This document shows, piece after piece, positions 942 to 7,292 of a stretch of 46,479 nt of DNA; position 1 is the first letter of the stretch; the number at the start of each line of letters is the position of its first letter. The DNA lies in contig JAOADT010000014.1 in assembly GCA_026417175.1 (NCBI GenBank), forward strand, positions 11,519-57,997, in the 5' to 3' direction. Below the pieces are notes generated by a model, which had not been told where the DNA came from, did not search any database, and was given only the letters and a program-made list of their open reading frames with translations. Both the position numbers and the translations under genes were made by a program. This DNA is from Deltaproteobacteria bacterium. Its GTDB lineage: Bacteria; Desulfobacterota; Syntrophorhabdia; Syntrophorhabdales; JANXAF01.

Positions 942-1514
942 GTGCGTGAATTTCTAAAGTTACTAGCAATTCTTCTAGTTTTTTTTGCCGGTTCAGCGAT
1001 TACATTGAGTTACACTTATACCAAAACTAAGCCTATTATTGAAGAGAGAAAACAGAAAAAGAAACTTGAGGCTATTTCCGAAGTACTTCCACCTTTTGAC
1101 AACGATCCGGTAAAGGAAGGGATTGTTATATGGGACGAAAAGCACGGAAACGTTGAATTTTACATTGGTAAAAAGGGAAAAGTTTTTACTGGAGTAGCTT
1201 TTTTAGGTGAGACAACAGGATATGGGGGAAAAGTAACTATGATATTGGGCGTAACACCCGATGGAAAATTGCACGGTATTAAAATCATAGATCACAACGA
1301 GACAATTGGTCTTGGATCAAAAATCACCGAGCCATCCTTTTTGAGGCAATTTAATGGAAGAGGCATTGATTCAGCAAAATGGGACGTAAAAAAGACGGGT
1401 GGTGACTTCGATGAAATAAGTTCTGCAACAATTTCTTCGAGAGCAGTAATAAAAGGGGTGAGAGAGGGGCTAGAACTGTTTGAAAAAAATAAAGGTAGGA
1501 TACTAACAAATTAA
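942..1514 (+). CDS. rnfG: Rnf complex subunit G (membrane-anchored flavoprotein)
   Basis: RnfG carries a covalently bound FMN on the outer face of the Rnf complex. I chose GTG 942 rather than the upstream TTG 810 because a G-rich ribosome site lies just before it, a TTGACA/TATAAA promoter candidate lies upstream, and the protein then begins directly with its membrane helix (residues about 5-25). The FMN-binding domain shows the conserved ETIGLGSKI stretch (about 120-128) and the flavinylation motif D157-E-I-S-S-A-T163, with Thr163 as the expected FMN attachment residue. The usual Gly of the SGAT motif is Ser here. At 190 residues it has normal length. It is the first gene of the operon; rnfE follows after 2 bases. 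The apbE gene at 6306 encodes the matching FMN transferase. Confidence 0.92.
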   Translation: MREFLKLLAILLVFFAGSAITLSYTYTKTKPIIEERKQKKKLEAISEVLPPFDNDPVKEGIVIWDEKHGNVEFYIGKKGKVFTGVAFLGETTGYGGKVTMILGVTPDGKLHGIKIIDHNETIGLGSKITEPSFLRQFNGRGIDSAKWDVKKTGGDFDEISSATISSRAVIKGVREGLELFEKNKGRILTN

Positions 1515-1516
1515 AT

Positions 1517-2131
1517 ATGGCTTTTTTTGAAGAGTTCAGTAGAGAACTGATTAAAGGCATAGGGAAGGAGAATCCAACAATCCGTTTGGTGATAGGTATG
1601 TGCCCGCCACTGGCTATCTCCACAAGTGTTCTCAACGGAATTGGAATGGGTCTAGCAGTAATTTTCGTGCTTTTAGGGTCAAACATAATTATTTCTCTTT
1701 TGAGAAGATACATCCCATCAAAAATTAGACTGCCCATTTTTATAGGAATCATATCCACATTCGTTACTATAACTGATCTATGCATAGAAGCTTATTTTCC
1801 CATTCTTCATAAGTCTTTGGGCATTTTTATCCCCCTAATCGTTGTCAACTGTATAATTCTTGCTAGGGCTGAGTCCTTCGCGTCCAAAAACCCAGTTGTT
1901 TTGAGTATTGCTGATGGTATCGGTATGGGGATAGGATTTTCTTTGGCGCTTATCCTTATATCTGCCGTACGTGAAAGTTTGGGCCAGGGAACGTTTGCTG
2001 GCTATTCGATACTTGGAGAAAAATTCGATCCGGCTCTTGTAATGGTTATGGCGCCAGGTGCGTTTTTCGTTGTTGGAGCGATAATTGCAATCTTTAATTA
2101 CATGGAGATGAAAAAGAGATGGAAAAGTTGA
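1517..2131 (+). CDS. rnfE: Rnf complex subunit E (integral membrane)
   Basis: This is an RnfE/NqrD family membrane protein of 204 residues with about six hydrophobic helices. It pairs with RnfA to form the membrane core through which electrons and ions pass. The family cysteines are present in GMCPPLAIS (about residue 29) and VNCIILARAE (about residue 110); in related structures such cysteines from the two paralogues hold an iron-sulfur cluster inside the membrane. It starts 2 bases after rnfG and overlaps rnfA by 13 bases. The choice of E over its paralogue A rests on the GKENPTIRLVIGMCP N-terminus and the LARAESFA motif. Confidence 0.93.
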   Translation: MAFFEEFSRELIKGIGKENPTIRLVIGMCPPLAISTSVLNGIGMGLAVIFVLLGSNIIISLLRRYIPSKIRLPIFIGIISTFVTITDLCIEAYFPILHKSLGIFIPLIVVNCIILARAESFASKNPVVLSIADGIGMGIGFSLALILISAVRESLGQGTFAGYSILGEKFDPALVMVMAPGAFFVVGAIIAIFNYMEMKKRWKS

Positions 2132-2700
2132 TTTTCATATTTTTCAATGTAGCCCTCATTAACAATTTTGTTCTGAGTAAATTTCTAGGTCTCTGTCCAT
2201 TTCTCGGTGTATCTAAGGATTTCAAGGCTTCCATTAGCATGGGTATTGCGGTTACCTTTGTAATGACAATGGCCTCAATTGTAACCTGGTTTTTTCAAGT
2301 ATATTTGTTGGATCCCCTAAAGCTGGAATTTTTGAGCACAATCGTTTTTATCGTTGTTATTGCTACCTTTGTGCAGTTTGTAGAGATGGTAATAGCAAAA
2401 ACATCTCCCGCTTTACAAGAAGCACTCGGGATCTATCTTCCTCTTATCACAACAAACTGTGCCGTACTTGGGGTCTCCTTATTAAATGTTAAGGAAAATT
2501 ACAATCTTGTTGAGTCCATCGTAAACGGTTTAGGAGGGGGATTAGGTTTCACTTTGGCGATAGTTATTATGGCTGGAATGAGAGAAAGACTTGAGTATTC
2601 AAATGTTCCAGAGCCTCTAAAAGGTTTTCCAATAGCTTTTATCTTGACAGGCATGCTCGCCCTTTCGTTTTTTGGATTTCAAGGATTTTTCTTCAGGTGA
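2119..2700 (+). CDS. rnfA: Rnf complex subunit A (integral membrane)
   Basis: This is the RnfA/NqrE paralogue of RnfE, 193 residues and mostly hydrophobic. Typical motifs are ALINNFVLSKFLGLCPFLGVS near the N-terminus and LITTNCAVLGVSL in the middle. The two cysteines (in GLCPFLG and TNCAVLG) match those thought to share a cluster with RnfE in the membrane. Its start lies inside the 3' end of rnfE, a 13-base overlap typical of coupled translation. rnfB follows 9 bases later. It is of normal length with no missing key residues. Confidence 0.94.
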   Translation: MEKLIFIFFNVALINNFVLSKFLGLCPFLGVSKDFKASISMGIAVTFVMTMASIVTWFFQVYLLDPLKLEFLSTIVFIVVIATFVQFVEMVIAKTSPALQEALGIYLPLITTNCAVLGVSLLNVKENYNLVESIVNGLGGGLGFTLAIVIMAGMRERLEYSNVPEPLKGFPIAFILTGMLALSFFGFQGFFFR

Positions 2701-2709
2701 GGATGCAAA

Positions 2710-3507
2710 ATGCCTGAATCCACCTTAACAAATTCTCTTTTCGTGATGGGGCTTTTGGCGCTTTTGTGTGGTGCAATTTTATATACAGCATCACGATTCT
2801 TTACTGTAGAGGGAACTGAAACCTTGTCACAATTAATCGAGAGATTACCTGGAGCAAATTGTGGTTCCTGTGGATTTGGCGGTTGCGCTGCATATGCTAG
2901 AGCGTTGGTGGAGGGAAAAAGCACCGTTGGGGCTTGTCGAGCTATGGACGAAGTAAAGTCCAGAGAGATTGCGGCCCTGCTTGGTCTTCAAATTGACTTC
3001 ACTGGACGGCCTCATGCGGTCGTCCTGTGTCAGGGTGGAGAAGGCGTTTCTCGGAAGAACGTCCAATACATAGGTATAAAAAGCTGTAAAGTAGCATCAA
3101 TATATTTCGGAGGAGACAAAGTTTGTGAATATGCATGTCTTGGATATGGTGATTGCAGTAGAGTTTGTCCTTTTTCTGCAATCCGAATGGATGATAAAGG
3201 CATACCTCAAGTTGATTTGGAGAAATGTGTCGGATGCGGTATTTGCAAAGATGAATGTCCCAAAAAGGTAATAGGTCTATTAAGCAGAGATTCCCATTTT
3301 ATTGTGGCCTGTGCCTCAAGGCATACAGGAAAACAGGTAGCTAAGATTTGTAAAAAGGGATGTATAGCTTGTAAGAGATGCGAAAAAGCTTGTAAGGAAA
3401 ACGCGATACTCGTAAATGAGAACTTGGCAAAGATAGACCCAGACAGGTGTAAAAATTGTGGTTCATGTTACGAAGTCTGCCCTACACGATCAATTGTTAA
3501 AATTTGA
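2710..3507 (+). CDS. rnfB: Rnf complex subunit B (multi-cluster ferredoxin subunit)
   Basis: RnfB is the likely entry or exit point for ferredoxin electrons. It has an N-terminal membrane helix (about 8-30), then a four-Cys domain (C51, C54, C59, C76, in ANCGSCGFGGC), then an extended ferredoxin region. Cysteine groups at 139/143/149/153, 173/176/179/183, 218/221/224/228 and 247/250/253/257 could hold four more [4Fe-4S] clusters, about five in total. The CLGYGDCSRVCPFSAI segment resembles the long RnfB of clostridial-type complexes more than the short gamma-proteobacterial form. The stop codon TGA shares a base with the ATG of the flavodoxin gene (TGATG), indicating translational coupling. 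Confidence 0.94.
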   Translation: MPESTLTNSLFVMGLLALLCGAILYTASRFFTVEGTETLSQLIERLPGANCGSCGFGGCAAYARALVEGKSTVGACRAMDEVKSREIAALLGLQIDFTGRPHAVVLCQGGEGVSRKNVQYIGIKSCKVASIYFGGDKVCEYACLGYGDCSRVCPFSAIRMDDKGIPQVDLEKCVGCGICKDECPKKVIGLLSRDSHFIVACASRHTGKQVAKICKKGCIACKRCEKACKENAILVNENLAKIDPDRCKNCGSCYEVCPTRSIVKI

Positions 3508-3983
3508 TGAAAACTTTAATAGTTTACTGTTCTAAAACAGGAAATACAAGAAAGGTGATAGAGAGTTTTGCAAAGGGTCTTGGTGGAGAAATAGATATTT
3601 TGAATTTAGATCTGACACCCGAAGGATGGTTGAAAAACTATACAAGCACATTCACACTGGACGTAAGTGATTATAACCTTGTTTGTTTTGGCGGCTGGGT
3701 AATGGGCATGCGAGTTCACCCTTTTTTAATAGCGTACATTAAGAGTTGTTACGGTTTAGAAGAAAAAAAGGTCGTTGTTCTCCTAACTGGTGGAACAACA
3801 TTTTCAAAAAATCACGCCTACGAAGATATTATAGGAGTTTTGAATGAAAGAAAAGTTAATCTCGTAGGATTTTTTTACACACCGACTCTTTTGGGATTAA
3901 CCCTCAATAAAAAAAAGTTAAGACTTGTTGAAGAGTTTGGAAGAAGTTTGATGAAAAATCTCGAAAAGGATGACGAGGTCTAG
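3507..3983 (+). CDS. flavodoxin-like protein inside the rnf operon
   Basis: This 158-residue flavodoxin-fold protein sits between rnfB and rnfC. The N-terminus (MKTLIVYCSKTGNTRKV) contains the FMN-phosphate loop SKTGNT after the first beta-strand, and later segments (NLVCFGGWVMGM, KKVVVLLTGG) fit the flavin-flanking strands. It has no signal peptide, so it should be cytoplasmic, the side where RnfB and RnfC act. ATG 3507 overlaps the rnfB stop by one base, and rnfC starts directly after its stop, so it is made with the complex. A flavodoxin is not a standard Rnf subunit. It could be an electron carrier that docks on RnfB or RnfC, or an unrelated passenger; the operon position favours the first. 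Confidence 0.88.
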   Translation: MKTLIVYCSKTGNTRKVIESFAKGLGGEIDILNLDLTPEGWLKNYTSTFTLDVSDYNLVCFGGWVMGMRVHPFLIAYIKSCYGLEEKKVVVLLTGGTTFSKNHAYEDIIGVLNERKVNLVGFFYTPTLLGLTLNKKKLRLVEEFGRSLMKNLEKDDEV

Positions 3984-5267
3984 GTGGACGGTTTTTTACC
4001 AACCTTTGTAAGGAGAAAATTTAGGCCTGAAAAGTTGAAAGAACCTGATTATAGAGTCGTTCCAGAAAGAATAGGTGATCCACGGATTGCTATAATTCCA
4101 TTGCACGATTATCCTTCTATGCCTTTTAAATGTTTGGTAAGTCTACATGACAAAGTTCAAATTGGACAAAAAATCGGATGGAAAGGGAAAGAACCTTTTG
4201 ATGTTTCCGTTCTTTCTCCCATATCTGGAATAGTAAAAGAAATAGCTAATCACCCTGTTCCTTCGGGCTCTCGTGTAATGTGTGTGGTCATAGAAAAAAA
4301 AGATTCAGATATCGAAATGGTGAGATCAGAGAACCTCGTGCGGATTAAGGATAAAAAAAGGGTTTTACAAGAGGCCGGTATTCCACTTGAGTATAAGGCA
4401 CTCACAGAAAGAGGGGTAGAAGCTATAGTAGTTAATGGTACAGAATTCGAACCAAATCTGACATCAACTTATACTCTTCTGTGGCACAGAACCCACGAGG
4501 TTATTAACGGACTTAAACTCCTCATGAATCTTTTCTCAATAAAACAAGGGATCGTATGTATCGAACGAAAAAATAAGGAGTTACTTGACAGAGTGAAAGA
4601 GCATGCAGAATCTTCAGGAGTAGCAGTTGTGAAGGCAGAAAGGAGTTATCCAGAGTCGGGTAACCTTCATCTTCTAAGATATGTTCTAAAAGGCAAAAAA
4701 AGAGTACTGAAAGAGGGGAAAGTGATTTTTGTTCGGCCACAAGACCTCATCGCAATAAGAGATGCTCTTGAGGAGGGAAAGCCTTACCTTGAAAAATATG
4801 TTACGGTTTCAGGATCTGCTATCGGCAACCCTAAAAACCTAATAGTTAAAATAGGTACTACCTTCAGCGAAGTATTGGAAAAACTTGATGTATCCTTAAG
4901 ACATTTATCCTGTGTTATAATGGGTGGTCCATTAATGGGTATTCCTCAGCCCACGTTACATGTTCCTATAACTCAGTTTACAGATGGTATTTGGGCTCTT
5001 TTTTCGGTAGATTTGACGAAGACTCACCGGTCAAAAGTGTACAGTGAAGGTGTGTGTGTAAGGTGTGCTAAGTGCGTAGATTCTTGTCCAGCTTCAATTG
5101 TCCCAAATGTTATCGTTGATTTCTTGAAAAAAGGGTTAAAAGACAGAGCTTTGGATATTGGTTTGAATCTTTGTATAGAATGTGGTTTATGTTCTTACGT
5201 ATGTCCAGCAAAAATACCACTATCTTTGATAATTAGAACCGAAAAAACGCCGGAAGCAAAAAGATGA
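3984..5267 (+). CDS. rnfC: Rnf complex subunit C, with degenerate FMN/NAD(H) site
   Basis: RnfC is normally the peripheral subunit that binds FMN and NAD(H). The protein (427 residues, GTG start directly after the flavodoxin stop) keeps the RnfC fold signatures: the N-terminal barrel segment with IPLHDYPSMP and VQIGQKIG, VIMGGPLMG (about 311-319), PITQFTDGIWAL, and two [4Fe-4S] motifs (C358/C361/C364/C368 and C397/C400/C403/C407). The nucleotide-binding motifs are not kept. The GGAGFPT loop reads LQEAGIPLE (128-136), the NGAECEP motif reads NGTEFEP (151-157), and the YPxGGEK loop reads YPESGNL (222-228). It may thus be a structural or electron-relay subunit with a non-NADH partner. The C-terminal coding end overlaps rnfD by ATGA. 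Confidence 0.88.
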   Translation: MDGFLPTFVRRKFRPEKLKEPDYRVVPERIGDPRIAIIPLHDYPSMPFKCLVSLHDKVQIGQKIGWKGKEPFDVSVLSPISGIVKEIANHPVPSGSRVMCVVIEKKDSDIEMVRSENLVRIKDKKRVLQEAGIPLEYKALTERGVEAIVVNGTEFEPNLTSTYTLLWHRTHEVINGLKLLMNLFSIKQGIVCIERKNKELLDRVKEHAESSGVAVVKAERSYPESGNLHLLRYVLKGKKRVLKEGKVIFVRPQDLIAIRDALEEGKPYLEKYVTVSGSAIGNPKNLIVKIGTTFSEVLEKLDVSLRHLSCVIMGGPLMGIPQPTLHVPITQFTDGIWALFSVDLTKTHRSKVYSEGVCVRCAKCVDSCPASIVPNVIVDFLKKGLKDRALDIGLNLCIECGLCSYVCPAKIPLSLIIRTEKTPEAKR

Positions 5268-6271
5268 GGGACATCACGGAAGAAAGAAAATTGTTAATGA
5301 CCTTACCTCCCCATTTGAGTACTGGAGAAACAATACACTGTCTTATGTTTGATGTTGTGATTGCTTCAGTTCCCATAATCCTTGCATCTTTCTATTACTT
5401 TGGTCCTCGGGCTTTGTGGGTGATTTTTCTTTCGAGTTTTGCGGCTGTACTTACAGAGGTCATTATTCAGGTGGGACGGATAAAACCACTCACTTTAAAA
5501 AACTTTGTTTATAAAGTGGTGACAGATGAACGAGTCACTGTGTTTGATGGAAGCGCCTTGGTCACAGGTATTCTACTGGGGTTCAATCTACCCCCGGGCG
5601 TGCCTTTTTGGATTCCGATAGTAGGTTCGGTCATAGCTATCACTTTTGGAAAACATTTTTTTGGAGGTCTTGGAAACAATATATTTAATCCGGCCCTTTT
5701 TGCCCGCGCCTTTTTGATGGTTGCGTGGCCACATCATATGACATCATGGGTATTACCTATAGACTGGAGCAAGTTGCTAACCCAGCCCTTTACGCCTTGG
5801 AGCTACGATGCCGTAAGTACAGCTACGCCTTTGAGTGTAGCAAAAATTAAGACGGTAGAATATCCGATCGTTGATCTTTTCCTGGGGAAAGTTGGTGGCT
5901 GTATAGGAGAGACGTCTGCACTGGCTATTCTGATCGGCGCCTTATATCTCCTGTACAAAGGAACTATTACATGGCATATTCCGATCCCTTTTCTTTTTAC
6001 TGTTGGTCTTGTGGCTTGGATTTTAGGGAAAAACCCCTTATTTCATCTTTTTTCCGGAGGCTTATTTCTGGGAGCTTTTTTCATGGCTACAGATATAGTT
6101 ACGAGCCCTGTTACAAGATTGGGACGTATCCTTTTTGGAATTGGATGCGGGCTACTTACGATTCTTATCCGGATTTACGGTTCTTATCCTGAAGGGGTTT
6201 GCTTCTCTATTTTGATAATGAACGCTTGTACTCCGCTTATCGACAGATACACTTTAAGGAGACGGTTATAA
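5264..6271 (+). CDS. rnfD: Rnf complex subunit D (membrane flavoprotein)
   Basis: RnfD is an integral membrane subunit (335 residues, many hydrophobic helices) with a second covalent FMN. The flavinylation motif is D182-A-V-S-T-A-T188-P-L, with Thr188 as the likely attachment site. Other family hallmarks are FDGSALVTGILLGFNLPP, FGKHFFGGLGNNIFNPAL and FFMATDIVTSPVT. The start ATG overlaps the rnfC stop (ATGA). It ends 34 bases before apbE, which encodes the enzyme that would install this flavin. Length and motifs are normal, unlike those of RnfC. Confidence 0.94.
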   Translation: MRDITEERKLLMTLPPHLSTGETIHCLMFDVVIASVPIILASFYYFGPRALWVIFLSSFAAVLTEVIIQVGRIKPLTLKNFVYKVVTDERVTVFDGSALVTGILLGFNLPPGVPFWIPIVGSVIAITFGKHFFGGLGNNIFNPALFARAFLMVAWPHHMTSWVLPIDWSKLLTQPFTPWSYDAVSTATPLSVAKIKTVEYPIVDLFLGKVGGCIGETSALAILIGALYLLYKGTITWHIPIPFLFTVGLVAWILGKNPLFHLFSGGLFLGAFFMATDIVTSPVTRLGRILFGIGCGLLTILIRIYGSYPEGVCFSILIMNACTPLIDRYTLRRRL

Positions 6272-6305
6272 TAAAAAAGTTTGAACTAAAGTGAGGGTTT
6301 AAAAT

Positions 6306-7292
6306 ATGAACAGAAGGCATTTTTTGAAATTGATTGGTTTGGCTAGTCTCGGCTTTGTATCAGTGAGTCCCTTAATCTTTTCTTGGAAGGAACAAAGAAA
6401 GTTAAAATCTGTGAAAAGAACCAGAACGCTTATGGGCACTTTTGTAACAGTTATAGTTCTTGATGATTCTGAAGCGAAAGCGCTTGAAGCAGTAGAGGTA
6501 GCTTTTGAAGAGATGGAAAGGTTAACCAAGATTTTCAGTCGGTTTGATCCTGATTCCCCAATTTTCGTGCTTAATAAAAATGGCTGTTTGAGAGAGATTC
6601 ATCCTGAATTACAGCAACTATTCAAGGAGGCTAGAGAACTGAATCTTCTCACTAATGGGTACTTTGATGTTACTGTGAAGCCTATTTTAGACTTATTGTC
6701 GGCAAAAGGAAATGGTGACTCGAGTATACCATTCACTGATATTCATGAAATTTTGTCAAACATCGGAATGGAAAAGATAATTTTTAGGAAGGAAGAGATA
6801 TTGTTTTCAAAAAAAGGAATGGGAATTACGTTTGATGGCATCGCTAAAGGGTTTATAGCAGAAAAGGCTATAGAAAAACTAAAAAAAATTGGTGTATCAA
6901 GTGCCCTTATAAATGCAGGTGGGGATATTCAGGTCATCGGAGATAAAGGGGGTAGACCGTGGAAAATAGGTGTAAGGGATCCCTTAAAAAGTGAAAGAAT
7001 TATTGAAACGGTTTATTTAAAAGAAGGCTCAATCGCCACTTCTGGTAGTTACGAGAACTATTTTGATGAGGACGGGAAACTTCACCATCTCATAGATCCA
7101 AAAAGTGGAGTTTCACCGAACAGGTTTTTAAGTACCACTGTGATTCATCCATCTTTGACTGTTGCGGATGCTCTTGCCACAGCCCTTTTTGTATGTCCCG
7201 AAACACAGATTAAATCCATTTTGAGTAAATTCCATGGGGCATCCTTAATCGTGGTCACCTCTACCGGAGCGAAAATTAGAATTACCGGATAA
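6306..7292 (+). CDS. apbE: FAD:protein FMN transferase ApbE, Tat-type leader
   Basis: ApbE moves FMN from FAD onto threonine residues of proteins such as RnfG and RnfD outside the cytoplasmic membrane. The N-terminus has a twin-arginine signature (NRRHFLK) followed by a hydrophobic stretch, which suggests Tat-linked export or membrane anchoring. Family motifs visible are LMGTFVTV (about 43-50), ITFDGIAKGFIAEKA, INAGGDIQVIG, TSGSYENYF, HHLIDPKSG and VADALATALFV. At 328 residues it is full length. It closes the rnf operon. Its last 48 bases overlap the 3' end of the MFS gene on the opposite strand. Confidence 0.94.
   Translation: MNRRHFLKLIGLASLGFVSVSPLIFSWKEQRKLKSVKRTRTLMGTFVTVIVLDDSEAKALEAVEVAFEEMERLTKIFSRFDPDSPIFVLNKNGCLREIHPELQQLFKEARELNLLTNGYFDVTVKPILDLLSAKGNGDSSIPFTDIHEILSNIGMEKIIFRKEEILFSKKGMGITFDGIAKGFIAEKAIEKLKKIGVSSALINAGGDIQVIGDKGGRPWKIGVRDPLKSERIIETVYLKEGSIATSGSYENYFDEDGKLHHLIDPKSGVSPNRFLSTTVIHPSLTVADALATALFVCPETQIKSILSKFHGASLIVVTSTGAKIRITG

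What the first reader, a model, noticed from the sequence alone, without database searches (positions are those of the whole stretch)
3984..5267. RnfC has lost the FMN/NAD(H)-binding motifs but kept both iron-sulfur motifs
All three nucleotide-site motifs are changed: GGAGFPT is now QEAGIPL, NGAECEP is NGTEFEP, and YPxGGEK is YPESGNL. The two 4-Cys motifs and the GGPLMG region remain. Lost NAD(H) binding in an otherwise intact Rnf implies a different cytoplasmic electron partner, plausibly the flavodoxin encoded just before it.
Basis: partly seen in the sequence, partly recalled or inferred. Interest (0 to 1): 0.75.

Follow-up and report, generated by a model that had tools for sequence, protein, structure and literature searches.

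The report
Flavodoxin-linked Rnf that lost NADH site
This bacterium's Rnf ion pump has lost the pocket that normally binds FMN and NAD(H), in a small family of pumps that all carry a dedicated flavodoxin gene instead, so the pump probably trades electrons between ferredoxin and flavodoxin rather than NAD+.

Summary
RnfC (window 3984-5267) keeps all eight cluster cysteines, but its FMN/NADH pocket is gone. The Gly-rich loop (VGxGGATF) is deleted by 8 residues rather than rewritten; YPxGxEK, NVxT and the DxR after motif 2 are lost; NGxExEP is mostly kept. The change is not peculiar to this genome. A whole-GTDB scan for the adjacent flavodoxin found 11 loci in 10 other genomes, all rnfB-fld, and rnfC follows wherever the contig reaches (10 loci). 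All 11 RnfC, the window's included, share the deletion and form one clade (100/99). In 395 genomes of the phylum the flavodoxin and this RnfC occur in the same 9 genomes, with wide score gaps below.

The other electron-transfer sites are kept: RnfB cysteines, RnfA/E cysteines, the flavinylated Thr of RnfG and, tellingly, of RnfD. Cytochrome-linked Rnf, which lost the RnfC pocket separately, also lost the RnfD Thr. So electrons here should still return to the cytoplasm and leave at RnfC's clusters. Best reading: an NAD-independent, ion-pumping ferredoxin:flavodoxin oxidoreductase (about 0.6). The partner and the site where it docks are inferred, not shown. I found no description of it in the papers searched.

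The parts
942..1514 (+). rnfG (start corrected to GTG 942; covalent-FMN Thr codon at 1428, motif SSATISS)
   Evidence: TIGR01947 above cut-off; motif and position
1517..2131 (+). rnfE
   Evidence: TIGR01948 above cut-off; both cysteines kept
2119..2700 (+). rnfA
   Evidence: TIGR01943 above cut-off; both cysteines kept
2710..3507 (+). rnfB, 265 aa polyferredoxin subunit, cysteines intact
   Evidence: TIGR01944 above cut-off; cysteine comparison
3507..3983 (+). flavodoxin; its ATG overlaps the rnfB stop by one base (TGATG) and its stop abuts the rnfC start, suggesting translational coupling
   Evidence: Flavodoxin_5 over cut-off; junctions read; flavodoxin fold; FMN-phosphate loop SKTGNT kept
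3984..5267 (+). rnfC without FMN/NADH pocket
4368..4397 (+). site of the 8-residue deletion of the Gly-rich FMN/NADH loop (QEAGI|PLEYK)
4434..4454 (+). NGTEFEP, mostly retained motif (Cys to Phe)
4647..4667 (+). YPESGNL, degenerate YPxGxEK
4731..4745 (+). VRPQD in place of xNVxT (fourth lost site)
5028..5042 (+). clade-specific RSKVY segment (invariant Ser350, Tyr353) just before the first cluster motif; candidate partner surface
5055..5090 (+). first 4-Cys motif
5172..5207 (+). second 4-Cys motif
5264..6271 (+). rnfD; covalent-FMN Thr188 codon at 5825 kept; clade-specific Cys26 codon at 5339
   Evidence: TIGR01946 above cut-off
6306..7292 (+). apbE, FAD:protein FMN transferase that would flavinylate RnfG and RnfD
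   Evidence: PF02424

Best explanation
This is a distinct, NAD-independent class of Rnf, operon rnfGEAB-fld-CD(-apbE). Reduced ferredoxin feeds RnfB. Electrons cross the membrane through the RnfA/E cluster to FMN on RnfG and come back through the flavins of RnfD to the two [4Fe-4S] clusters of RnfC, moving Na+ or H+ as in ordinary Rnf. There the usual last step is missing: RnfC has no FMN to pair electrons into a hydride for NAD+. Instead the clusters exchange single electrons with the FMN of the co-encoded flavodoxin, which thus replaces the lost FMN in trans. The complex would be an ion-pumping ferredoxin:flavodoxin oxidoreductase, or run in reverse. Shown by sequence: pocket loss in RnfC, retention of the other redox-site residues, strict one-to-one linkage with the flavodoxin, purifying selection. 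Inferred: cofactor content, docking of flavodoxin at RnfC rather than RnfB, direction, coupling ion.
For: Pocket: 8-residue loop deletion in 11/11 and only 4-7 of 17 pocket residues kept, against 16-17/17 in canonical RnfC; all 8 cysteines kept. Domain constraint: in this clade the NuoF-like flavin domain is the least conserved (29.5% mean identity, against 54.8% in canonical RnfC) while the cluster domain is well conserved (55.7% against 48.3%). Linkage: all 11 close flavodoxin homologues found in GTDB follow rnfB, and rnfC follows wherever the contig reaches; in 395 phylum genomes the flavodoxin (255-272 bits, next 45.8) and this RnfC (552-637 bits, next 313) occur in exactly the same nine genomes. 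One clade, support 100/99. Route intact: RnfD covalent-FMN Thr kept 11/11, RnfG motif kept in 9 of 10 (L080 has Ser), RnfA/E and RnfB cysteines kept. Published route: riboflavin of RnfD to the two RnfC clusters to FMN to NAD+ (PMC9588780). No cytochrome gene at these loci. Flavodoxin dN/dS 0.05-0.07.
Against: No biochemical data exist. RnfC clusters are also kept in the cytochrome-linked class, where the RnfD Thr is lost, so kept clusters alone do not prove exit through RnfC. The flavodoxin is basic in 10 of 11 members (pI 8.4-9.5), whereas classical flavodoxins are acidic (PMC5861303). The AlphaFold2 model of RnfC is poor in the cluster domain (pLDDT about 30-50), so no docking surface could be judged, and no complex was modelled.
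Confidence: 0.6

Rival explanations
1. The flavodoxin is the electron donor (or alternative donor) at the RnfB side, replacing ferredoxin, and electrons leave the complex elsewhere, for example at RnfG or from RnfD to a quinone as in Nqr.
For: Flavodoxins can generally stand in for ferredoxin (PMC5861303); the gene also abuts rnfB. NqrA shows that an RnfC homologue can lose its FMN while the complex keeps working (PMC11889175; PMC4014512). The genome has c-type cytochrome maturation genes and a cytochrome c3-like protein elsewhere.
Against: RnfB is unchanged in its cysteines, whereas RnfC is the altered subunit. RnfC keeps its eight cysteines, unlike NqrA, and RnfD keeps its FMN threonine, unlike the cytochrome-linked class. 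No cytochrome gene lies at any of these loci.
Confidence: 0.15
2. The basic flavodoxin is a membrane-surface shuttle that passes electrons from RnfC to menaquinone, so the complex works overall as a ferredoxin:quinone reductase.
For: Pfam places the flavodoxin nearest Flavodoxin_5 and Flavodoxin_3, broad families that, from my own knowledge, include the quinone-linked HemG; it is basic in 10 of 11 members; fold neighbours include the quinone reductase WrbA.
Against: Fold matches are broad (flavodoxins, flavodiiron proteins and WrbA at similar scores). HemG membership was not tested and no quinone site was identified.
Confidence: 0.12
3. RnfC still binds FMN and NAD(H) through rebuilt contacts.
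For: NGxExEP is largely kept, the overall fold is still RnfC-like (Foldseek top hit 9eri_C), and Complex1_51K is still recognised (58.5 bits).
Against: Four separate pocket segments are changed together in all 11 members, and the flavin domain has become the least conserved part of the protein.
Confidence: 0.06
4. RnfC has become a structural subunit only, and this Rnf delivers electrons to a periplasmic cytochrome encoded elsewhere, like the Methanosarcina acetivorans complex.
For: M. acetivorans Rnf does not react with NAD(P) and is proposed to hand electrons to a multihaem cytochrome (PMC4023990). Cytochrome-linked Rnf in this phylum lost the same RnfC pocket independently.
Against: That class in this phylum also lost the RnfD FMN threonine, kept here 11/11. 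No cytochrome sits at these loci, and this does not explain the invariant flavodoxin.
Confidence: 0.05

Closest known systems
Ferredoxin:NAD+ oxidoreductase Rnf of Acetobacterium woodii, Clostridium tetanomorphum and Azotobacter vinelandii (PDB 9eri, 7zc6, 8ahx)
   Same: Six homologous subunits with kept cluster and flavin-attachment residues; RnfC fold and both 4-Cys motifs
   Different: RnfC pocket for FMN and NAD(H) deleted; extra flavodoxin gene between rnfB and rnfC; gene order GEAB-fld-CD; RnfC N-terminal DGFLPTFxRR arm; RnfD Cys26
Methanosarcina acetivorans Rnf with cytochrome c (PMC4023990)
   Same: An Rnf reported not to react with NAD(P)
   Different: Its partner is a multihaem cytochrome c and methanophenazine; here no cytochrome gene but a cytoplasmic flavodoxin
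Cytochrome-c-linked Rnf of the same phylum (e.g. L036, L135, L137-L140, L142-L144)
   Same: RnfC pocket residues lost, eight cysteines kept
   Different: Separate clade, no 8-residue deletion, RnfD FMN threonine lost (0/11), cytochrome gene in front of rnfC
NqrA of Na+-NQR
   Same: RnfC homologue without FMN (PMC11889175)
   Different: NqrA also lost both clusters; here all eight cysteines stay

Membership tests
Rnf complex (RnfABCDGE) | All six subunits encoded together | tested here: met
   rnfG, E, A, B, C and D all above NCBIfam subfamily cut-offs
Rnf complex (RnfABCDGE) | Covalent-FMN threonines in RnfG and RnfD, RnfA/E cysteines, RnfB polyferredoxin cysteines | tested here: met
Rnf complex (RnfABCDGE) | Ferredoxin oxidation coupled to ion transport | not testable with these tools
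   needs purified complex or vesicles
Ferredoxin:NAD+ oxidoreductase (NAD-dependent Rnf) | FMN/NADH pocket in RnfC (Gly-rich loop, NGxECEP...DxR, YPxGxEK, NVxT) | tested here: not met
   6 of 17 pocket residues kept, loop deleted
Ferredoxin:NAD+ oxidoreductase (NAD-dependent Rnf) | Two [4Fe-4S] motifs in RnfC | tested here: met
   8/8 cysteines
Cytochrome-linked NAD-independent Rnf | Multihaem cytochrome gene in the operon | tested here: not met
   no ORF with two or more CxxCH at any flavodoxin-type locus
Cytochrome-linked NAD-independent Rnf | RnfC in the cytochrome-linked clade | tested here: not met
   separate clades, 100/99 and 99/96
Flavodoxin | Flavodoxin fold with FMN-phosphate loop (S/T)xTGxT | tested here: met
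   SKTGNT near-invariant; AlphaFold2 pLDDT 88, Foldseek hits to flavodoxins
Flavodoxin | Acidic protein | tested here: not met
   pI 8.4 here, basic in 10 of 11

The most novel reading that the evidence does not exclude
The flavodoxin is a dedicated, possibly stably bound seventh Rnf subunit whose FMN has taken over the role of RnfC's own FMN, giving an ion pump that works between two one-electron carriers, ferredoxin and flavodoxin, with no pyridine nucleotide: a third terminal partner for Rnf besides NAD+ and cytochrome c.
Probability: 0.5. Interest if true: 0.82.

Novelty: new variant of a known kind. Interest (0 to 1): 0.7.

Why it matters
Rnf is usually annotated as ferredoxin:NAD+ reductase, and energy budgets of uncultured anaerobes are built on that. 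Here the annotation would be wrong in a definable set of genomes, recognisable by the gene order and the 8-residue deletion. The comparison with cytochrome-linked Rnf suggests a simple rule, based on the RnfD threonine, for reading from sequence whether electrons return to the cytoplasm. If confirmed, it is a new redox couple for a primary ion pump and shows how a bound flavin can be exchanged for a separate flavoprotein.

Tried and rejected
Lone decay of one gene: rejected by 11 conserved members and dN/dS 0.15-0.25. A shared origin with the cytochrome-linked degenerate RnfC: not supported by the tree. A second, NAD-competent RnfC in the same genome: none; the only other NuoF-like genes are at a CODH/ACS cluster and an Hdr-like cluster. 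Distant flavodoxin hits L081-L116: none lies in an rnf operon. Literature searches for flavodoxin-linked or NADH-site-less RnfC found no description, but only open-licence papers are held. The AlphaFold2 model of the RnfC cluster domain was too weak for a surface analysis.

Full report
Observation. The operon at window 942-7292 reads rnfG, rnfE, rnfA, rnfB, flavodoxin, rnfC, rnfD, apbE. The flavodoxin start codon overlaps the rnfB stop (TGATG), its stop abuts the rnfC GTG, and rnfC overlaps rnfD, so the genes look translationally coupled. RnfC aligns over its length with the three RnfC of known structure. Against them and canonical relatives, the Gly-rich loop is deleted by 8 residues, YPxGxEK is YPESGNL, NVxT is RPQD and the DxR after the second motif is gone, while NGxExEP is mostly kept. 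That these segments line the FMN/NADH site rests on the homology of RnfC to NuoF (PMC9588780) and on my knowledge of the NuoF structures; I could not score contacts from coordinates. All eight cluster cysteines are present.

Is it shared? A scan of 395 genomes of the phylum found eight further RnfC that match this one from residue 1. Each has the flavodoxin between rnfB and rnfC. A scan of one genome per species across GTDB with the flavodoxin alignment gave 11 loci at 43-62% identity: ten loci from nine assemblies titled Proteobacteria, Deltaproteobacteria, Syntrophaceae, Thermodesulfobacteriota or uncultured bacterium, and one from the Nitrospirota species Candidatus Magnetomicrobium cryptolimnococcus. 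All 11 follow rnfB, and rnfC follows wherever the contig reaches; the weaker hits (36% identity or less, or short stretches) never lie in an rnf operon. Profile scans gave clean gaps: flavodoxin 255-272 bits then 45.8, RnfC 552-637 bits then 313, in the same nine genomes. The nearest relatives of the window's own genome (same family and order) have no RnfC at all.

Evolution. With the motif columns left out, the 11 flavodoxin-linked RnfC form one group with 100/99 support. RnfC linked to cytochrome c also lost the pocket but forms another group (99/96). In the flavodoxin group the NuoF-like domain is the least conserved domain (29.5% mean identity, against 54.8% in canonical RnfC) while the cluster domain stays constrained (55.7% against 48.3%); dN/dS is 0.15-0.25 for rnfC and 0.05-0.07 for the flavodoxin.

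Mechanism. In the structures, electrons go from RnfB through RnfA/E and RnfG, return through RnfD flavins to the two RnfC clusters, then to FMN and NAD+ (PMC9588780; PMC11889175). In the flavodoxin group every station up to the RnfC clusters keeps its residues: RnfB and RnfA/E cysteines, the RnfG flavinylation motif (one member, L080, has Ser for Thr) and the RnfD xATPL threonine, 11/11. The cytochrome-linked class has lost that RnfD threonine in 11/11, as have four other degenerate Rnf (L038, L131, L136, L141), which fits electrons leaving outside the cytoplasm there. So in the flavodoxin class the return branch appears to be in use, and the missing final FMN is most simply supplied by the flavodoxin. 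Clade-specific conserved features lie where a new partner could matter: RnfC Ser350/Tyr353 before the first cluster motif, the RnfC N-terminal DGFLPTFxRR arm, and RnfD Cys26, 11/11 against none in the canonical and cytochrome classes, close to the N-terminal arm that in C. tetanomorphum is buried in RnfC.

Energetics (inference). Classical flavodoxins have SQ/HQ potentials below about -400 mV and Q/SQ couples at least 200 mV higher (PMC5861303), so the Q/SQ step could accept electrons from ferredoxin with a drop comparable to or larger than that to NAD+. This flavodoxin is basic, which may shift its potentials; they are unknown.

Limits. No experiment, no complex model, a weak model of the cluster domain. 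The genome also has a CODH/ACS cluster with NuoEF-like genes, an Hdr-like cluster with NuoEF-like genes and nuoM/nuoN-like genes (apart from the NuoF-like genes, annotated by eye from the sequence), so NAD(H) is probably handled elsewhere.

Noticed in passing
L036, L037, L134, L135, L137-L140, L142-L144: Cytochrome-c-linked Rnf in the same phylum lost both the RnfC FMN/NADH pocket and the RnfD flavinylation threonine, while keeping the RnfG motif and all RnfC cysteines; probably a second NAD-independent class.
   Followed up: partly
L131, L136, L141, L038: Further RnfC without the pocket and RnfD without the threonine, with no multihaem cytochrome gene within the stretch read; partner unknown.
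   Followed up: partly
window 5339-5341: RnfD Cys26 (HCLMFDV), invariant in the flavodoxin class and absent from canonical and cytochrome-linked RnfD.
   Followed up: partly
L041 3647-5629: RnfC fused to an N-terminal MetV-like region, next to a MetF-like gene (identified by eye); flavin motifs intact.
   Followed up: no
L132, L133: Stand-alone RnfC-like genes without other rnf genes in the stretch, motif YPAGDEQ, on a very long branch.
   Followed up: no
L149 and L150: Window's genome: CODH/ACS cluster with NuoEF-like genes, and an Hdr-like cluster with NuoEF-like genes (identified by eye).
   Followed up: partly
L034 5502-12237 to window 719: Branched-chain amino-acid-type ABC transporter genes and an acyl-CoA-ligase-like gene lie directly upstream of rnfG (identified by eye; the last one by Pfam Peripla_BP_6).
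   Followed up: no
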